NCBI GenBank assembly: GCA_016879935.1
Contig: JAACJQ010000434.1
Coordinates: 1 to 38,079, forward strand
DNA from: Archangiaceae bacterium
GTDB taxonomy: Bacteria > Myxococcota > Myxococcia > Myxococcales > Myxococcaceae
Reading direction: 5' to 3'
Length of the DNA stretch: 38,079 nt
Shown: positions 10,391 through 23,898 of the stretch, in pieces
Numbering within the stretch: position 1 is the stretch's first letter
Layout: every line of letters begins with the position of its first letter
The notes under the pieces: generated by a model
Told to the model about the DNA's origin: nothing
Seen by the model: only the letters and a program-made list of their open reading frames with translations
Database searches by the model: none
Program-made: the position numbers and the translations under genes

Positions 10391-10404
10391 GCCCTGATCA
10401 GGGC
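10391..10404. terminator. Perfect palindrome between convergent genes
   Basis: GCCCTGATCAGGGC is a perfect 14-base palindrome. It lies 4 bases after the stop of the plus-strand lipoprotein gene and overlaps the stop codon of the minus-strand glycosyltransferase gene. It could act as a bidirectional terminator core, but it lacks a loop and a T-run, so the call is weak. Confidence 0.25.
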
Positions 10405-11873
10405 AGACGCCACGCGTAGTTCGGATCAGCACGACAGGGACTGTCGGGGATCTTCACCAGCACGAAGTTCTTGTCCTCGGCGATGGGCGGCAGCGAGTTG
10501 CCCTTCGGCAGAATGGCGTAGTTGCACGTGCCCGCCTGCGAGCAGTCGTAGGGCCAGCCTGGAGAAAAGAGCGGGGCCTTCGTGTGCAGGTACGTCGCGC
10601 CGCCCATCCACGCGGGGTGCACTGGCGTGAAGAGCCCGCACAGGTCTTTCTGCTGCGAAGCGACCAGCATCAGCCGGTTGATGGGCCCGTTGTCGTCCCA
10701 CGCGCTGTCGTTGTCGCGGCCCGGGTACTGGCCGAGCTGCCCGAACGTGAGCGAGCCGTGCGTCGCGGCCGATTGAAGTGACGCCAGCACCGCCGCGCCC
10801 ATGCCCACCTGGCGCACGCGCTCGATGGAGAGCCCGCTGAGCCCCACGCCGACGAGCGCCGCGAGCATCGGGAGCATCGGCAGAATGAAGCGGTACTCCT
10901 TGTGCGGTGACGCCGAGTGGAGCGCGAAGAAGAGCAGGGCGATGGCGATGAGCGCGGGCGCGCGACGCAGCGAGAGCACCAGCCCACCCACGAGCACGAC
11001 CGTGATGAAGGGCATCGACGTCCACAGCCGCTGCGCGAAGAAGTACCAGGGCGCGACTCCCCAGCCCGCCGCTTTGCCCTCGATGAGGTTGAAGCGCAGG
11101 TACACGACCGCGGAGTGAAACCAGCCGCCCGCCATCACTTTCGGCGCGTGGCTCCAGGTGAAGGCGTCGAGCGCTCCGAAGAGGAAGGCCCAGAGCGCGA
11201 GCACCGCGGCGACGTCGCGCAGCGCTTTCCACTGCCGGCGCGCCGAGAGCACTCCGACGATGGCGACGCAGACGACGGCCGACTGCAGCCGGAACAACAC
11301 GGCGAGCCCGAGCAGCGAAGCGCCCAGCCAGAGCAACCGTCGCGCGTGCACCGAGGGCGTCGCTCCGAACGCCCGCTCGACCAGTGACGTATCGAGCACG
11401 AGCGAGAGGCCCCAGACGATGGGCAGCACCGTCGCGTTCTCACTCATCGCACGCGGCGCGAAGTACAGCACCGGAGCCGCCAGGCTGAAGATGGAGGCGC
11501 ACGCCGCCGCCGGAAGTTCGTCAGCGCCCACCGCTCGCGAGAGCCGATACGTGCCCAGCGCCGTGCCGACGGAGACGACGATGAACACCACCTTCACCAC
11601 GGAGATGTACTGCGACGGTTGATCAGCCCCGACGATGGCGCAGAGCTTCATGATCAACGCGACGAGCCCCGGCAGCGCCCAGTTGCGAGCGCCGTCGATG
11701 AACTCCCAGGGAATGAGGCCGTGGCCAAAGACCAACGCGTGCGCGGGCTCGAACGACTGGTAAATCTCGTCGGGCCAGAAGATGCCGTGGTCGCCAAGGA
11801 GCCCGAGCCGGAGCACCAGACCGAGCGCGAGCGGCACGTACAGCAGCAGCTGCGCAGAGCGGATTTTCGGCAT
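10398..11873 (-). CDS. GT22-type (Alg9/PIG-B-like) membrane mannosyltransferase
   Basis: This is a 491-residue multi-span membrane protein with about ten hydrophobic segments. Two hallmarks of glycosyltransferase family 22 are present. One is the first-loop motif 'FWPDEIYQSFEPAHALVFG' with the catalytic-type D-E at residues 35-36 and the following 'IPWEF'. The other is 'HKEYRF' at about 324-329, which matches the H-K-E-x-R-F signature of this family. Eukaryotic members add mannose from dolichyl-phosphate-mannose to lipid-linked sugars or GPI anchors; the bacterial donor is presumably polyprenyl-phosphate mannose (inference). ATG 11873 is chosen because it directly precedes the first membrane helix. 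The C-terminal 100 residues form an extracytoplasmic domain with several Cys. No other glycan gene is adjacent. Confidence 0.82.
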   Translation of the reverse strand: MPKIRSAQLLLYVPLALGLVLRLGLLGDHGIFWPDEIYQSFEPAHALVFGHGLIPWEFIDGARNWALPGLVALIMKLCAIVGADQPSQYISVVKVVFIVVSVGTALGTYRLSRAVGADELPAAACASIFSLAAPVLYFAPRAMSENATVLPIVWGLSLVLDTSLVERAFGATPSVHARRLLWLGASLLGLAVLFRLQSAVVCVAIVGVLSARRQWKALRDVAAVLALWAFLFGALDAFTWSHAPKVMAGGWFHSAVVYLRFNLIEGKAAGWGVAPWYFFAQRLWTSMPFITVVLVGGLVLSLRRAPALIAIALLFFALHSASPHKEYRFILPMLPMLAALVGVGLSGLSIERVRQVGMGAAVLASLQSAATHGSLTFGQLGQYPGRDNDSAWDDNGPINRLMLVASQQKDLCGLFTPVHPAWMGGATYLHTKAPLFSPGWPYDCSQAGTCNYAILPKGNSLPPIAEDKNFVLVKIPDSPCRADPNYAWRLP

Positions 11874-12039
11874 TCGCCGGGCCGTGTACCTCGCTGATCG
11901 TCGGTTGCCCACATCTGCCCACGCTCGCGATTCCAACAGGCTGCAGAAACATGCGGGTGAGGAGGGTCAATGGAACAACTGCACGGTTTCGCTGGCCGAT
12001 GACTCATCATTCGTCGCCCATTGAACTGAGGAACCCGTC

Positions 12040-13644
12040 ATGACCGTTCGCCGCCTCGATACGCCGAAGCCGCCTCCGCCGCCCAAACCCGTGAAGGCGA
12101 AAGCCAGTGTTGCCGCCAGCGTTGGCGCGAGTGGGTCGGTTCGCGCGGGCATTTCGGCAAGCGGGTTTGCCGCTGCCGCGAAGTCGCCCGTCGCCCTGGC
12201 GGCACCGGTCGCTCACGGGTTGCTCGATGGCGCGCTCGCGGTCGCGAATCACCGCGCGACGGAAGCGATTGGCCTCGCGCGCAGTCTGCTCGGCGGCGCG
12301 AAAGATCTGATCAGCGGCGCTGCGAACATCGCAGAGAAGGCGGGCTCGGGCGTTCGCGACACGCTGCGCACGCTCCTCTCGGACCCGGGCGCCGCTGCCG
12401 AGAAGCCGATCAATCGCGCGAACCTGACCGGTCTCGACAAGGCCGTCGTCAACGCGATGGGCCTGGACCGGATGACGCCGGGCCAGAAGACCTCGGTGCA
12501 GATCAGCGCGAACGCCGAGCTCGCCGCGGTGCTCGGAGTCGACGTCGGCGCCAAGGTGCAGGTCAGCATCGAGCGCAGCACGGACGACCCGAACAAGTTC
12601 AAGGTGAGCATCGGTGGCGGCGCGTCGGTCGCGGGCAAGGTGACGGGTGACACGGCGGGCGCCGAGGCGAACGCGGCGTTGTCGGTCGAAGGCACGGCCG
12701 GCGTCGAGCTGACCATCGACCTCTCGAAGAAGGGCGCAGCGACCGAGCTCGCGGCGTTCGGCCTGCAGACCGGCGCGATGGCGGGCATTGCCTCGCTCCC
12801 CGGCGTCGGCCCTGCGGCGGCGTCGTTCCTCACCGGCATTCAGGAGCTGCCCGGCGTGAACCTGCCCGGCGAGCCCATCGACTTCGTGCGCAAACACGTC
12901 ACGGCCGTCGAGGTCGGCGTCGGCGGAAAGCTCACGGGCATTCTCGGCGGCACGCTCGGGCCCGGTGTGGAAGGGCAGGTCGCTCCGTACTTGAAGGGCG
13001 GCGGGCGCATCGAGTTCAACGACAACGGCACGCTCACGCTGAAGGGCACCGTCGCCGGCGGCGTGGAAGGCGAAGTGAAGGGCGCGGTCGGCGGTGGTGG
13101 CGTGCAGGGCGCGATTCGGCTCGCGGGTGGACAGGCCGAGGTCGCGTTCGAGCGCAGCCTCGTGCTGCAGCCGGGCAAGCCGCCGAAGGTGTTGTCAGAG
13201 GGCTACAAGGCGACCATCACGCTGCAGGGTGACGTCGCGACGCGCGGTGGCCAGGTGAAGCTCGAGGTTGGTGTCGATCAGCTGCCTCCCGCGATTCAGG
13301 AGCGCGTGCTCGGCGCTCTCGCGCGCGGAGACACGGCGAAGGCGCGCGCGTTGATCGGTGAGGCGGTCGACAAGGGGCAGGTCACGGCGGCCATTGGCGT
13401 CACGTCGATCACCAACGTCTCGGGCGAGCTGCAGGTGAAGCCGATGGCGGCGGGGACGGGAGGGGGCGTCACCATCGGTGGCCAGGTCACGAACGAGGTG
13501 CCGGTCGCGAACGGTTCGGTCACCGTCACGTCGAAGGGCATCACGCTCAAGGCGTCTGCGTTCGGTTATCCCGCGGGCACCGAGCTCACGTGGCAGCAGG
13601 TGCGAGACCTGACGAAGAAGTTGCCGCCCGTCGTGCAGCACTGA
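12040..13644 (+). CDS. Large Gly/Ala/Val-rich protein with Pro-rich N-terminus, no signal peptide
   Basis: The protein has 534 residues. ATG 12040 lies 9 bases after GAGG. The N-terminus (MTVRRLDTPKPPPPPKPVKA) has no signal peptide. It is followed by an Ala-rich helical region (to about residue 130) and then long alternating Val/Gly strands ('AKVQVSIERSTDDPNKFKVS', 'GRIEFNDNGTLTLKGTVAGG', 'GSVTVTSKGITLKASAF'). One hydrophobic segment (about 247-265, 'GAMAGIASLPGVGPAAASFL') could insert into a membrane. The pattern suggests a beta-rich repeat domain. I do not recognise the family. The N-terminal style (M, basic/polar start, poly-Pro) recurs in the lysin at 21976-23898. Both may leave the cell by a non-Sec route (inference). 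It is flanked by a divergent and a convergent gene, so it is its own transcription unit. Confidence 0.75.
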   Translation: MTVRRLDTPKPPPPPKPVKAKASVAASVGASGSVRAGISASGFAAAAKSPVALAAPVAHGLLDGALAVANHRATEAIGLARSLLGGAKDLISGAANIAEKAGSGVRDTLRTLLSDPGAAAEKPINRANLTGLDKAVVNAMGLDRMTPGQKTSVQISANAELAAVLGVDVGAKVQVSIERSTDDPNKFKVSIGGGASVAGKVTGDTAGAEANAALSVEGTAGVELTIDLSKKGAATELAAFGLQTGAMAGIASLPGVGPAAASFLTGIQELPGVNLPGEPIDFVRKHVTAVEVGVGGKLTGILGGTLGPGVEGQVAPYLKGGGRIEFNDNGTLTLKGTVAGGVEGEVKGAVGGGGVQGAIRLAGGQAEVAFERSLVLQPGKPPKVLSEGYKATITLQGDVATRGGQVKLEVGVDQLPPAIQERVLGALARGDTAKARALIGEAVDKGQVTAAIGVTSITNVSGELQVKPMAAGTGGGVTIGGQVTNEVPVANGSVTVTSKGITLKASAFGYPAGTELTWQQVRDLTKKLPPVVQH

Positions 13645-13687: not shown

Positions 13688-14272
13688 TCAGTCGAAGTCC
13701 CACGCGCACTCGCCGCCCTCGGGAATGCACGGCCCCACGAGCCGCAGCTTTTCGGTCGTCACCGGCGAGGCGCCTGGCGGCCCATCAGCCTCGAGCACGC
13801 GCGTCTCGAGCCGGTAGCGGCGCGGCGGCGTGACGGTGAACGGGTGTTCGTGTCGTTCTGCGTGTTCACGTGTGACGTGGAGGCCTGACGCGGGCGTGAG
13901 GAGGAGCCCGTCACCTTCGCGGCTCCAGCGGCCCTCTTCGCGTACGAGCTTCTTCGACGCGTTCATGCCGCTGCCCGACGCCTCCACCATGGTGAGGCGA
14001 TACGTTTCCTTCTCGAGCGTCAGCTCCACGACGCTGCCAGGCGGCCACTTCTCGCCGAGCGTTCCATCAGAGCTCGCCTCGACGCCCGTGAAGCCGCCCG
14101 TGCGTTGCTGCCAGGTGCCCTCGAGCGTGCCGTCGAAGCCGCTCTGAACGCTCGCACGCGTGGGCACTGGAGCGACCGTCGCGTCTCCGATGCGGAGCAG
14201 GAAGAAGGCGACTCCACCCGCGACGAGACAGGCGGCGACGAGCACTCCCGCGACGATGAGCACGATGGGCAT
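13688..14272 (-). CDS. Membrane-anchored small beta-domain protein
   Basis: The protein has 194 residues. MPIVLIVAGVLVAACLVAGG and the following VAFFLL form one N-terminal membrane helix. A GTG at 14284 is an alternative start. After a short linker the soluble part reads 'GTLEGTWQQRTGG', 'VVELTLEKETYRLTMVEA', 'EEGRWSREGDGLLLTP', 'RRYRLETRVLEADG', a run of beta strands reminiscent of lipocalin-like or META-like domains. No family is firmly recognised. Cys residues near the end ('GPCIPEGGECAWD') may pair. The start lies 28 bases after the stop of the Nei gene on the same strand, which makes co-transcription possible, but no functional link is evident. Confidence 0.7.
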   Translation of the reverse strand: MPIVLIVAGVLVAACLVAGGVAFFLLRIGDATVAPVPTRASVQSGFDGTLEGTWQQRTGGFTGVEASSDGTLGEKWPPGSVVELTLEKETYRLTMVEASGSGMNASKKLVREEGRWSREGDGLLLTPASGLHVTREHAERHEHPFTVTPPRRYRLETRVLEADGPPGASPVTTEKLRLVGPCIPEGGECAWDFD

Positions 14273-14300
14273 GGCGTTCTTCACGCCGGCACACCGTAGC

Positions 14301-15080
14301 TCACCGGCGCTGACACGACTCGCACGCGTACATCGTTCGCGCCGCGAGCTCCCAGCGACGAACGGCTTCACCACAGCGACGGCACAGGCGTTGTCCGTAC
14401 ACCCAGGTGCGTTCTCCCTTCGGAGCGCGCGCTCCACGCGGGTGGCCGACCGTGACGATGCGCCGATCTTTCACGCCGCGCTCGAGCTGCAGGCGCAGCG
14501 TCTTCCACAGTCTCGTGAAGTCTCGTCGCTCGAGCTCGTCGCCGCGAATCTCTGGGTGCAGGCCCGCCACGAACAGGCCTTCGGCGCGATACACGTTGCC
14601 CACGCCGCTCACGATGGACTGGTCGAGCAGCAACGCGCCGAGTGAACGACGAGACGATGACACGCGCTTCCACACCTCGGCCGCGTTCGCTTCGACGCGA
14701 AGCAGGTCGGGTCCCAGCCGCGCGTGAATCTCAGCGACACCTTCGAAATCGAGCAGCTCGCACGCGGTCGGCCCGCTCAGGTCGAGGCACACGTCGTCGG
14801 TCTCGAGCCGCCAGCGAATCGCTCCACGCGGCGTCGGTGCAGGTTGGCGCGCGCGGCGAAAGCGGCCGTACAGCCCGAGGTGCACGTGCACGTTGGTGCC
14901 CGATTCGAAGCGGTAGAAGAGGTGTTTGCCCCACGCTTCGACCTGCTCCACGCGTTGCCCGTCGAGCTCTTTCGCTTCGTCGGCGAAGCGGCCCTGTGGC
15001 GAGCTGGAGCGAATGCGTCGCCCTGCGAGGAGCTTGCGATGGTCGATGGCGAGCCGGTGGAGCGTGTGGCCTTCAGGCAT
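14301..15080 (-). CDS. nei: Fpg/Nei family DNA glycosylase (endonuclease VIII-like)
   Basis: This 259-residue bifunctional DNA glycosylase/AP lyase removes oxidised bases. The start MPEGHTLHRLA is the family's catalytic N-terminus: Pro2 is the Schiff-base nucleophile and Glu3 the general acid, which fixes ATG 15080. 'WGKHLFYRF' carries the conserved Lys and 'VHVHLGLYGRFR' the core strand. 'GVGNVYRAEGLFVAGLHPE' is the helix-two-turn-helix with the DNA-contacting Asn. A C-terminal zinc finger, C-R-R-C ... C-E-S-C, carries the conserved Arg ('RTMYACESC'). The MPEGHTLHR start resembles actinobacterial Nei1 rather than Fpg. It has 141 bases of upstream space to a divergent gene. Confidence 0.93.
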   Translation of the reverse strand: MPEGHTLHRLAIDHRKLLAGRRIRSSSPQGRFADEAKELDGQRVEQVEAWGKHLFYRFESGTNVHVHLGLYGRFRRARQPAPTPRGAIRWRLETDDVCLDLSGPTACELLDFEGVAEIHARLGPDLLRVEANAAEVWKRVSSSRRSLGALLLDQSIVSGVGNVYRAEGLFVAGLHPEIRGDELERRDFTRLWKTLRLQLERGVKDRRIVTVGHPRGARAPKGERTWVYGQRLCRRCGEAVRRWELAARTMYACESCQRR

Positions 15081-21950: not shown

Positions 21951-21975
21951 GTTCACTCACTCCGAGGTTCCTCCC

Positions 21976-23898
21976 ATGAAGGTCACCCAGCCCCGCCCCT
22001 CGTTGCCCGTCACGCAGCCCACGACGCCCGCCGCGCCGCCACCGCCCATCGACGTGAAGGCCCCGGCCGACGCGTTCGGGCCTGCCGCACCCGCGCGCTT
22101 GCTGCCCACCGCGACGCCTGCCGCCACGGGCGTCGGCACCATCACCAGCGACCGCACGACGTGGGTTCGTGAAGGCGCGAGCGGCGCGACGGTGAGCGAC
22201 CTGCAGCAAAAGCTCAAAGACGCGGGCTTCGACCCCGGCCCCATCGACGGCAAGTTCGGCGCGAAGACGCGAGAGGCGCTGCTGAAGTTCCAGCAGTCGA
22301 AGGGCATCGGCGTCGACGGAATCGTCGGCCCCGAGACGCGCGCCGCGTTGCTCGGAGAGCCGCTGCCTCCGAAGCCCACGCCCTCGGGTGGTGAAGCGCC
22401 GAGCGGTCCGTCGGGTCCATCGGGTCCCGTCGCGCCGGGCGGTCCGTCGGGTGCCGCCGCGTCGGGCCTCGAGGCCGTCGCGCTCAAGAAGCACGGCCCT
22501 GAGTTCGTGCAGAAGGTGAAGGAGATGTCGGCGCGGCTCGGTGTTCGCCCCGAGTGGATGCTGGCCGTCATGCAGAACGAGAGCGGTATGGACCCGTGGC
22601 GCAAGAACCCGAACGGCGGCGCGACCGGCCTCATTCAGTTCATGCCCGCCACCGCGAAGGCGCTCGGCACCACCACTGACGCGCTCGCGAAGATGAGCGC
22701 CACCGAGCAGCTCACCTACGTCGAGAAGTTCTATTCGAGCTTCAAGGGCCGCATGAAGTCGGGCTCCGACATGTACCTGGCGACGTTCTGGCCGGCCGCG
22801 GTGGGCAAGGGTGACGACTACAAGATTGGCGGCGCCGAAGTCGCGAAGGCGAACCCGGCGTTCGACCTGAACAAGGACGGGCAAATCACCGCTGGCGAGT
22901 TCCGCGAGTACTACCAGAAGCGCTTCCCGAACATGGCGGGTGGAGCGCCGGCTCCGTCGTCGGGCCCCTCGAGCTCGAGCGGCGGCAAGACCGACTTCAA
23001 CGTCGCGCAGGCCGAAGCGGCGGTGCGGAAGAATACGGCGCGCAACACGCAGTTCACGATGGAGGAGATCAAGAGAGACCCCGACGCGTTTTTGAAGACC
23101 GTGGTGCAGGTCGACGGGCTCGCGAAGACCTCGAACGACGCGACCTCGTGCGGGCCGACCTCGATGCTGATGGGCATGATCGCCGGGCGCCCGGAGTCGA
23201 TTCAGGAGCTCGCCTCCAAGCTGGTCGACGCGAACGGCAACGTCACGCCGGCGGGCCAGAAGCTCTTCGGCCCCGACGCGAACTCCGGGCTGCTCAAGGA
23301 GTGCGTGAAGCGCATTCGCGACGGAAAGTTCTCGGCCGCCGACGTCACCTTCATGGCCGAAGGGCTCTATGCGTCGACGGGCTCTCCGTCGGGCGGCACC
23401 AACGCGAACGACCTCATCGCGCTGCGCTCTGCCATCACCTCACTCGGCGTCTCGGTGCCGCGCATGGAGCTGCAGCAGTTCGGCAGCGCCGACGGCGGCC
23501 TCGGCCACTGGCGCGTGGGCGTCAACGGCAAGCAGTACAACCCGTGGCCGGACAAGAAGGGCCAGGCGAGCATCATCAGCGGCCCGAGCGGTCTCGCCGA
23601 TGGCGCGAGCGACGGCGTGAAGTGGACCAACCGCGAGAAGCTCTACCTCGACGACAACATGGTGATGCGCAACGTCTACAGCATCACCACGAAAGACACG
23701 CCGACGTCGGCCGGCAGGACGTGGGCGGTGACCGACGACCCACCGCTCTTCATCGCGCGCTACGACCGCCAGCCCGATGGCTCGTTCAAGCGCTCCGAGC
23801 TGAACATGGCGCGCATGCAGCAGGTGGCCGACGGCAAGGTGACGATGGACGACGCCAACAAGGTCTTCACCGACATTCCGGCGCGAAGCGTGTCGTGA
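21976..23898 (+). CDS. Multi-module lysin: peptidoglycan-binding, lytic transglycosylase, EF-hand and Cys-peptidase-like domains
   Basis: The protein has 640 residues and no signal peptide; the N-terminus (MKVTQPRPSLPVTQPTTPAA) is Pro-rich. Residues 65-127 form a peptidoglycan-binding domain ('GFDPGPIDGKFGAKTREALL'). After a Pro/Gly/Ser linker, 165-290 is an SLT-type lytic transglycosylase with catalytic Glu202 in 'MQNESGMDPW' and 'GGATGLIQFMPATAKALG'. A full EF-hand loop lies at 297-308 (D-x-N-x-D-G-Q-I-x-x-x-E). The C-terminal roughly 250 residues have 'DATSCGPTSMLMG' (Cys392) and 'GHWRVGVNGKQYNPWPD' (His511 and a following Asn/Asp), the layout of a papain/C39-like peptidase. The protein should cut both glycan strands and peptides of cell walls. 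GAGG sits 9 bases before the ATG. A predation or self-wall role is inference. Confidence 0.87.
   Translation: MKVTQPRPSLPVTQPTTPAAPPPPIDVKAPADAFGPAAPARLLPTATPAATGVGTITSDRTTWVREGASGATVSDLQQKLKDAGFDPGPIDGKFGAKTREALLKFQQSKGIGVDGIVGPETRAALLGEPLPPKPTPSGGEAPSGPSGPSGPVAPGGPSGAAASGLEAVALKKHGPEFVQKVKEMSARLGVRPEWMLAVMQNESGMDPWRKNPNGGATGLIQFMPATAKALGTTTDALAKMSATEQLTYVEKFYSSFKGRMKSGSDMYLATFWPAAVGKGDDYKIGGAEVAKANPAFDLNKDGQITAGEFREYYQKRFPNMAGGAPAPSSGPSSSSGGKTDFNVAQAEAAVRKNTARNTQFTMEEIKRDPDAFLKTVVQVDGLAKTSNDATSCGPTSMLMGMIAGRPESIQELASKLVDANGNVTPAGQKLFGPDANSGLLKECVKRIRDGKFSAADVTFMAEGLYASTGSPSGGTNANDLIALRSAITSLGVSVPRMELQQFGSADGGLGHWRVGVNGKQYNPWPDKKGQASIISGPSGLADGASDGVKWTNREKLYLDDNMVMRNVYSITTKDTPTSAGRTWAVTDDPPLFIARYDRQPDGSFKRSELNMARMQQVADGKVTMDDANKVFTDIPARSVS

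What the first reader, a model, noticed from the sequence alone, without database searches (positions are those of the whole stretch)
12040..13644. 534-residue soluble protein with a Pro-rich leader like that of the lysin
Both proteins begin with M, a polar/basic residue, Val and then poly-Pro rich in K/V/A ('PPPPPKPVKAKA', 'PPPPIDVKAPA'), lack signal peptides, and have a GAGG ribosome site 8-9 bases before the ATG. This may be a shared export tag in front of unrelated cargo. The cargo here is a repeat-like Val/Gly beta domain with one hydrophobic segment, possibly pore-forming.
Basis: partly seen in the sequence, partly recalled or inferred. Interest (0 to 1): 0.6.

Follow-up and report, generated by a model that had tools for sequence, protein, structure and literature searches.

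The report
Signal-less beta-domain protein of myxobacteria
This protein from a myxobacterium carries, on its own, an undescribed beta-rich domain that relatives fuse to a variety of toxin tails, so it is probably an exported antagonism protein, but its leader is not shown to be an export tag shared with the nearby lysin.

Summary
The 534-aa ORF (12040-13644) is real: four orthologues keep the frame at about 80% identity. Its start, MT[VI]RR plus poly-Pro, is conserved. But the leaders of this protein and the lysin do not align, the GAGG site is common, and poly-Pro leaders are not enriched on lysins. A looser pattern, V/I at position 3, is enriched on signal-less peptidoglycan-binding proteins (7 of 16 against 63 of 495).

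The real result is the cargo. Residues 122-534 belong to an unnamed beta-domain found in 34 of 195 genomes of the phylum: in 1400-1800-aa polymorphic toxins, before variable toxin tails, and in 500-900-aa signal-less proteins that end with it, like this one. A weak AlphaFold model (pLDDT 58.6) resembles outer-membrane beta-barrels (Z up to 14.2), yet aromatic belts and a Sec signal are missing. The five genomes with the stand-alone form lack T6SS and phage-type sheaths but encode a type III export gate.

Best reading: a Sec-independent antagonism protein whose amphipathic beta-domain acts on a target envelope. Delivery and pore formation are inferred, not shown.

The parts
12028..12031 (+). 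GAGG ribosome site, 8 bases before ATG
12040..13644 (+). 534-aa protein P0001, signal-less, single copy in the genome
   Evidence: found in 5 of 195 phylum genomes including this one
12040..12087 (+). residues 1-16: conserved leader MT[VI]RR....PPPPPK
   Evidence: alignment of the five proteins; 76% mean pairwise identity
12088..12189 (+). residues 17-50: variable Ala/Ser/Lys linker with invariant SGF at 41-43
   Evidence: 52% mean pairwise identity; invariant columns
12190..12402 (+). residues 51-121: amphipathic helical stretch (modelled helix 56-112, low confidence)
12403..13641 (+). residues 122-534: beta-domain shared with myxobacterial polymorphic toxins; long alternating strands, barrel-like model
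10398..11936 (-). divergent upstream neighbour, PF03901 mannosyltransferase family; conserved beside P0001 in four genomes of the genus (this one included)
13688..14437 (-). convergent downstream neighbour with one N-terminal membrane segment (by reading); conserved in position but diverging faster (48-50% identity)
21976..23898 (+). lysin P0002: PG_binding_1 (residues 69-125) and SLT (182-233); compared for the leader only
21964..21967 (+). GAGG ribosome site of the lysin, 8 bases before ATG

Best explanation
P0001 is a stand-alone member of an undescribed myxobacterial beta-domain family that also forms the middle part of 1400-1800-aa polymorphic toxins. Shown: the homology, the missing Sec-like segment, the missing toxin tail, the conserved leader, the strongly amphipathic long strands, and the absence of T6SS and phage-type sheaths from the genomes that carry it. 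Inferred: the protein leaves the cell by a Sec-independent route and its amphipathic beta-domain acts on or in the envelope of a target cell, either as a pore or as the part that in the toxins carries the tail across. In this protein it works without a tail of its own.
For: Profile searches: the five close proteins, then a 1512-aa protein with a PG_binding_1 domain in G188 (E 7.5e-20; full-domain alignment; Pfam), then the toxins at E 6e-5 to 4e-3. With those in the profile: 46 matches in 34 of 195 genomes. Independent profile-profile checks: the five against eight diverse short members, probability 98.5%, E 3.8e-15; against nine toxins, 91.6%, E 8e-7. Toxin nature: 10 ORFs read share the front and a pre-toxin region and end in about 7 different tails by reading; one tail is Endonuclea_NS_2 (E 1.2e-12); three stand in tandem in G139, and 3 of 5 single loci have a small co-directional ORF next downstream. 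Strand alternation 44.4 against 18.4 for shuffles, 0 of 5000 reach it. All 50 listed VIA-align rows are outer-membrane barrel chains, best Z 14.2, rmsd 4.0 over 208 residues. VipB and Phage_sheath_1: 0 of 5 genomes with P0001; FHIPEP: 5 of 5.
Against: The model is weak (mean pLDDT 58.6, pTM 0.55; Foldseek TM about 0.2 with rmsd over 14). Only 4 of 203 strand residues are aromatic, so the aromatic belts of outer-membrane barrels are missing; a soluble barrel or sandwich with a hydrophobic core fits the same alternation. No immunity gene or toxin tail adjoins P0001. Direct comparison of the five proteins with the 530-aa g23 group alone is weak (probability 16%), though that group matches the toxins at E 1e-51. 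Nothing here shows export, toxicity or membrane binding.
Confidence: 0.5

Rival explanations
1. The leader is a real Sec-independent export tag recognised by the myxobacterial needleless type III system (T3SS*), whose effectors are unknown, and it sits on both lysins and beta-domain proteins.
For: A T3SS cluster is present in the genome: SctV and SctU over NCBIfam cut-offs, SctN, SctJ, SctL and YscO-like proteins. It encodes small proteins starting MSVRG... and, from an internal start, MAVNRIDSTPARLST.... V/I at position 3 in 7 of 16 signal-less PG-binding proteins against 63 of 495. T3SS* is needed for prey lysis and its effectors were called unknown in 2023 (PMC10433427, passages; PMC12075869, passages).
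Against: The published P. syringae rule (PMC3338616, abstract), applied strictly, is met by 0 of 17 beta-family and 3 of 16 PG-binding proteins against 27 of 495; P0001 fails on an acidic residue at position 7, the lysin on serine content. My looser rule was made after seeing the sequences. G070 carries a beta-domain protein but is not among the FHIPEP genomes listed. 161 of 195 genomes have FHIPEP, partly flagellar, so co-occurrence says little.
Confidence: 0.15
2. The beta-domain is a soluble structural or lipid-binding spacer; the stand-alone protein stays inside the cell or in a coat, and the poly-Pro leader is only a disordered linker.
For: Low aromatic content, low-confidence barrel model; conserved, single-copy, stable place within the genus.
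Against: Same domain in the middle of polymorphic toxins; leader conserved better than the linker behind it; most strands of 12-22 residues with strong alternation.
Confidence: 0.3
3. P0001 is a decayed or orphan toxin that lost its tail.
For: It ends near where the toxins continue with a Gly-rich linker and tail.
Against: Intact and with third-position changes dominant in five genomes, its own C-terminal helix conserved; similar tail-less members in other genera.
Confidence: 0.05

Closest known systems
Polymorphic toxin systems (modular toxins with variable C-terminal domains; PMC3482391, passages read)
   Same: Shares its beta-domain with 1400-1800-aa proteins of this architecture, with coiled-coil front, linker, pre-toxin region and variable tail.
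   Different: P0001 has no tail and no adjacent co-directional immunity candidate.
Outer-membrane beta-barrels, nearest autotransporter translocators BrkA, NalP, AIDA-I and CymA, FapF, FadL
   Same: Predicted meander of long amphipathic strands; VIA-align Z about 10-14 over about 175-240 residues.
   Different: No Sec-like segment, no aromatic belts, sequence identity 3-13%, low-confidence model.
PopC of Myxococcus xanthus (PMC6434023, passages read)
   Same: Precedent for a myxobacterial protein exported without a signal peptide; the inner-membrane step is an open question there.
   Different: A protease; no sequence comparison made here.
Type III secretion substrates of P. syringae (PMC3338616, abstract read)
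   Same: Aliphatic residue at position 3 and more than 10% Ser in the first 50.
   Different: Acidic residue at position 7 in all five proteins.

Membership tests
Polymorphic toxin | variable C-terminal toxin domain | tested here: not met
   P0001 and four orthologues end with the beta-domain and a short helix
Polymorphic toxin | shared trafficking or presentation region | tested here: met
   beta-domain homologous to the middle of toxins
Polymorphic toxin | immunity gene directly downstream on the same strand | tested here: not met
   downstream gene is on the opposite strand, in 4 of 4 genus members with P0001
Sec/BAM outer-membrane beta-barrel | Sec signal peptide | tested here: not met
   hydropathy scan only, no dedicated predictor; Pro/Lys-rich start
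Sec/BAM outer-membrane beta-barrel | closed transmembrane barrel fold | tested here: inconclusive
   model pLDDT 58.6, pTM 0.55; VIA-align Z 14.2 but Foldseek TM about 0.2
Sec/BAM outer-membrane beta-barrel | aromatic belts (recalled feature) | tested here: not met
   4 aromatic of 203 residues in modelled strands
T6SS or extracellular contractile injection cargo | sheath genes in the same genome | tested here: not met
   VipB at 1e-20 and Phage_sheath_1 at 1e-10: 0 of 5 genomes with P0001, which are 87-100% complete assemblies
T3SS substrate (P. syringae pattern) | more than 10% Ser in the first 50, aliphatic or Pro at 3 or 4, no acidic residue in the first 12 | tested here: not met
   P0001 meets the first two and fails the third
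T3SS substrate | secretion dependent on the T3SS | not testable with these tools
   needs experiment; the export gate is present

The most novel reading that the evidence does not exclude
A Sec-independent, self-inserting beta-barrel module that myxobacteria use as a pore or translocator in target envelopes, deployed both alone (as here) and as the carrier part of polymorphic toxins, exported through the needleless T3SS*/Kil predation machinery whose effectors are unknown.
Probability: 0.12. Interest if true: 0.85.

Novelty: new variant of a known kind. Interest (0 to 1): 0.48.

Why it matters
The beta-domain matched no Pfam, NCBIfam or PHROGs family for P0001, and in the one full-length toxin scanned Pfam recognised only the tail. 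It links tail-less signal-less proteins to a set of polymorphic toxins in myxobacteria. If exported, these proteins are concrete, testable candidates for the unidentified effectors of contact-dependent predation, and a Sec-less barrel used by toxins would be an unusual way to cross a target envelope.

Tried and rejected
Viral contigs, phages and plasmids: no relatives. PDB by sequence: none. First AlphaFold job with five close sequences: pLDDT 39, not usable. BFVD fold search: only weak barrel-like hits. Weak hits G044, L014/L015 and L123 in G065 (looks like an unrelated TPR protein with a signal, by reading) were taken as chance. DNA repeats in the gene: nothing beyond short, mostly two-copy matches. 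A 'D[GSA]F[ED]' motif in the leaders of some relatives: not enriched in the first 100 residues (4 of 309, against 1 and 3 of 309 in the next two stretches). Full-length lysin orthologue: none in 59 relatives at 1e-30. Literature searches for signal-less secreted proteins or such toxins in myxobacteria listed nothing that I recognised as describing this domain; that is a statement about those listings and the passages I read only.

Rows dropped: of 45 PG_binding_1 matches in two genomes, 30 came as loci; 2 were second domains of the same ORF; 28 were read; 12 were dropped (10 start inside a PG domain or have it within about 20 residues, L204 read in a wrong frame, L213 start unclear), leaving 16. 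The beta-family set collapses close copies and leaves out L111, L118, L123 and the G139 toxins; it has 18 rows and 17 (G188 left out there). The background gene calls are rough, from a 1.10-Mb sample of G000, two of whose 78 stretches (L145, L146) were taken because of weak hits, while part of the PG set comes from G149.

Full report
The observation. The window is one whole contig of a 9.5-Mb, 445-contig genome; named relatives of the protein come from Myxococcaceae, Myxococcales and Myxococcus MAGs. The 534-aa ORF is real: coding composition, single copy, orthologues in G001, G003, G006 and G023 at 79-81% identity, with third-position changes dominant. MT[VI]RR and PPPPPK are conserved while the linker behind them is not: mean pairwise identity 0.76 for residues 1-16, 0.52 for 17-50, 0.76 for 51-121, 0.84 for 122-534. 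Both leaders have GAGG 8 bases upstream, which is common in this genome (179 of 685 starts).

The shared-leader idea. By sequence the two leaders are not similar. In a 1.10-Mb sample (78 stretches plus the window; 685 rough gene calls) 21 signal-less proteins have a Pro-rich start and 3 of them are M-x-V, against 57 M-x-V overall. Of the three, two are the pair in question. A broader pattern is suggestive: among 16 signal-less PG-binding proteins from G000 and G149, 7 have V/I at position 3 (63 of 495 background, p 0.0028) and 14 have at least 8 S/T/P in the first 30 (168 of 495, p 2e-5). For the beta family V/I at 3 is 5 of 18 (p 0.076). A looser type-III-like rule of my own gave 9 of 16 and 5 of 18 against 40 of 495, but it was set after seeing the sequences. 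The published P. syringae rule gave 3 of 16 and 0 of 17 against 27 of 495, i.e. no support. So a tag is possible but not established, and poly-Pro is not its mark.

What the cargo is. P0001 has no Pfam, NCBIfam or PHROGs family (best E-values 0.18, 0.071 and none). A profile of the five proteins found a 1512-aa G188 protein with PG_binding_1 and a sub-threshold LysM, whose C-terminus aligns with the whole domain. Adding it brought in Myxococcaceae proteins of about 1500-1630 aa. The widened profile found 46 matches in 34 of 195 genomes: 19 in toxin-sized ORFs of 1416-1802 aa in 16 genomes, one in G188, and 26 in ORFs of 161-934 aa. I read 10 of the 19 large ORFs and, of the 26 short ones, the five close proteins plus 20 of the other 21, leaving out G114. 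The large ones begin without a Sec-like start (for example MGGLSPTGGGSG), have Ala/Arg coiled coil, the beta-domain, a Gly/Asn linker, a conserved pre-toxin stretch, and about 7 different tails among 10 by reading; one is a DNA/RNA endonuclease, and no other tail reached a Pfam cut-off. G139 has three in tandem; of five single loci, L060, L063 and L066 have a small co-directional ORF next downstream, and L059 and L062 do not. The short ones include nine of 517-561 aa in genus g23 with Pro/Lys-rich starts (for example MGIGLPKISLPKPKIPNP) and diverse others. Profile-profile comparisons that do not depend on the iteration's E-values: 98.5% (E 3.8e-15) with eight diverse short members, 91.6% (E 8e-7) with nine toxins, only 16% with the g23 group directly, while g23 and toxins match at E 1e-51.

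Fold. With 32 rows the AlphaFold model reaches pLDDT 58.6, pTM 0.55, with the ten-residue blocks of 121-240, 281-350 and 411-520 between 50 and 84. It shows about twelve strands, most of them long, a helical hairpin at 233-267 and another at 417-444. Foldseek lists FadL, OpcA and autotransporter barrels at E 2e-5 to 1e-3 but TM about 0.2. VIA-align gives Z up to 14.2 and all 50 rows shown are outer-membrane barrel proteins. Strand alternation far exceeds shuffles, though the strands come from a model that itself uses the pattern. Against a normal outer-membrane protein: 4 of 203 strand residues aromatic, no Sec-like segment. I cannot tell which face is outside, so a soluble barrel remains open.

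Context. P0001 keeps its divergent GT22 and convergent membrane-anchored neighbours in 4 of 4 genus members that have it; none of the window genes tested matched beside the G023 copy except P0001 itself. There is no immunity-like partner on its strand.

Delivery. VipB and Phage_sheath_1 are absent from all 5 genomes carrying P0001 and from 3 genus members without it, while toxin-bearing G126, G144, G148 and G149 have VipB. FHIPEP is present in 5 of 5, but also in 161 of 195 genomes. In G000 one copy lies in a flagellar-like cluster (by reading) and one in a T3SS cluster with SctV, SctU, SctN, SctJ, SctL and YscO-like proteins; I did not scan every gene there, so the missing needle and secretin of T3SS* are not verified. 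A review and a paper (passages) state that T3SS* effectors are unknown or undefined and that T3SS* is needed for prey lysis. PopC shows that a signal-less myxobacterial protein can be exported, by an unknown inner-membrane step (passages).

Verdict. The finding leads to something of interest, but not the one proposed: the leader claim is weak, and the cargo belongs to an unnamed toxin-associated beta-domain family. Homology is well supported; function as an envelope-acting, Sec-independent antagonism protein is inferred at about even odds.

Noticed in passing
window 21976-22080 and L019:12436-12981: The lysin leader (IDVKAPADAFGPA) and another signal-less PG-binding protein of the same genome (PVVKAPDAFERA) share a KAP-DAF stretch, a closer likeness than that between the lysin and P0001.
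   Followed up: partly
window 13688-14437: Convergent membrane-anchored neighbour of P0001 keeps its position but diverges much faster (48-50% identity) than P0001 (about 80%).
   Followed up: partly
L221:11860-19783 and L225:443-11402: T3SS cluster of this genome; it encodes small proteins of no clear family starting MSVRGVGRGG and, from an internal start, MAVNRIDSTPARLST.
   Followed up: partly
L222: The genome also holds a flagellar-type cluster with its own FHIPEP protein, judged from N-termini only.
   Followed up: no
L124:3086-17533: Three large polymorphic-toxin genes of this family in tandem in G139.
   Followed up: partly
L117 and L118: Two matches at contig ends of G002 look like two pieces of one beta-domain gene split by the assembly.
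   Followed up: no
L190, L194, L207, L209, L215: G149 has many signal-less PG-binding proteins with S/T/P-rich starts of the type MTVR, MSVR, MRIS, MAID; a possible class of unconventionally exported lysins.
   Followed up: partly
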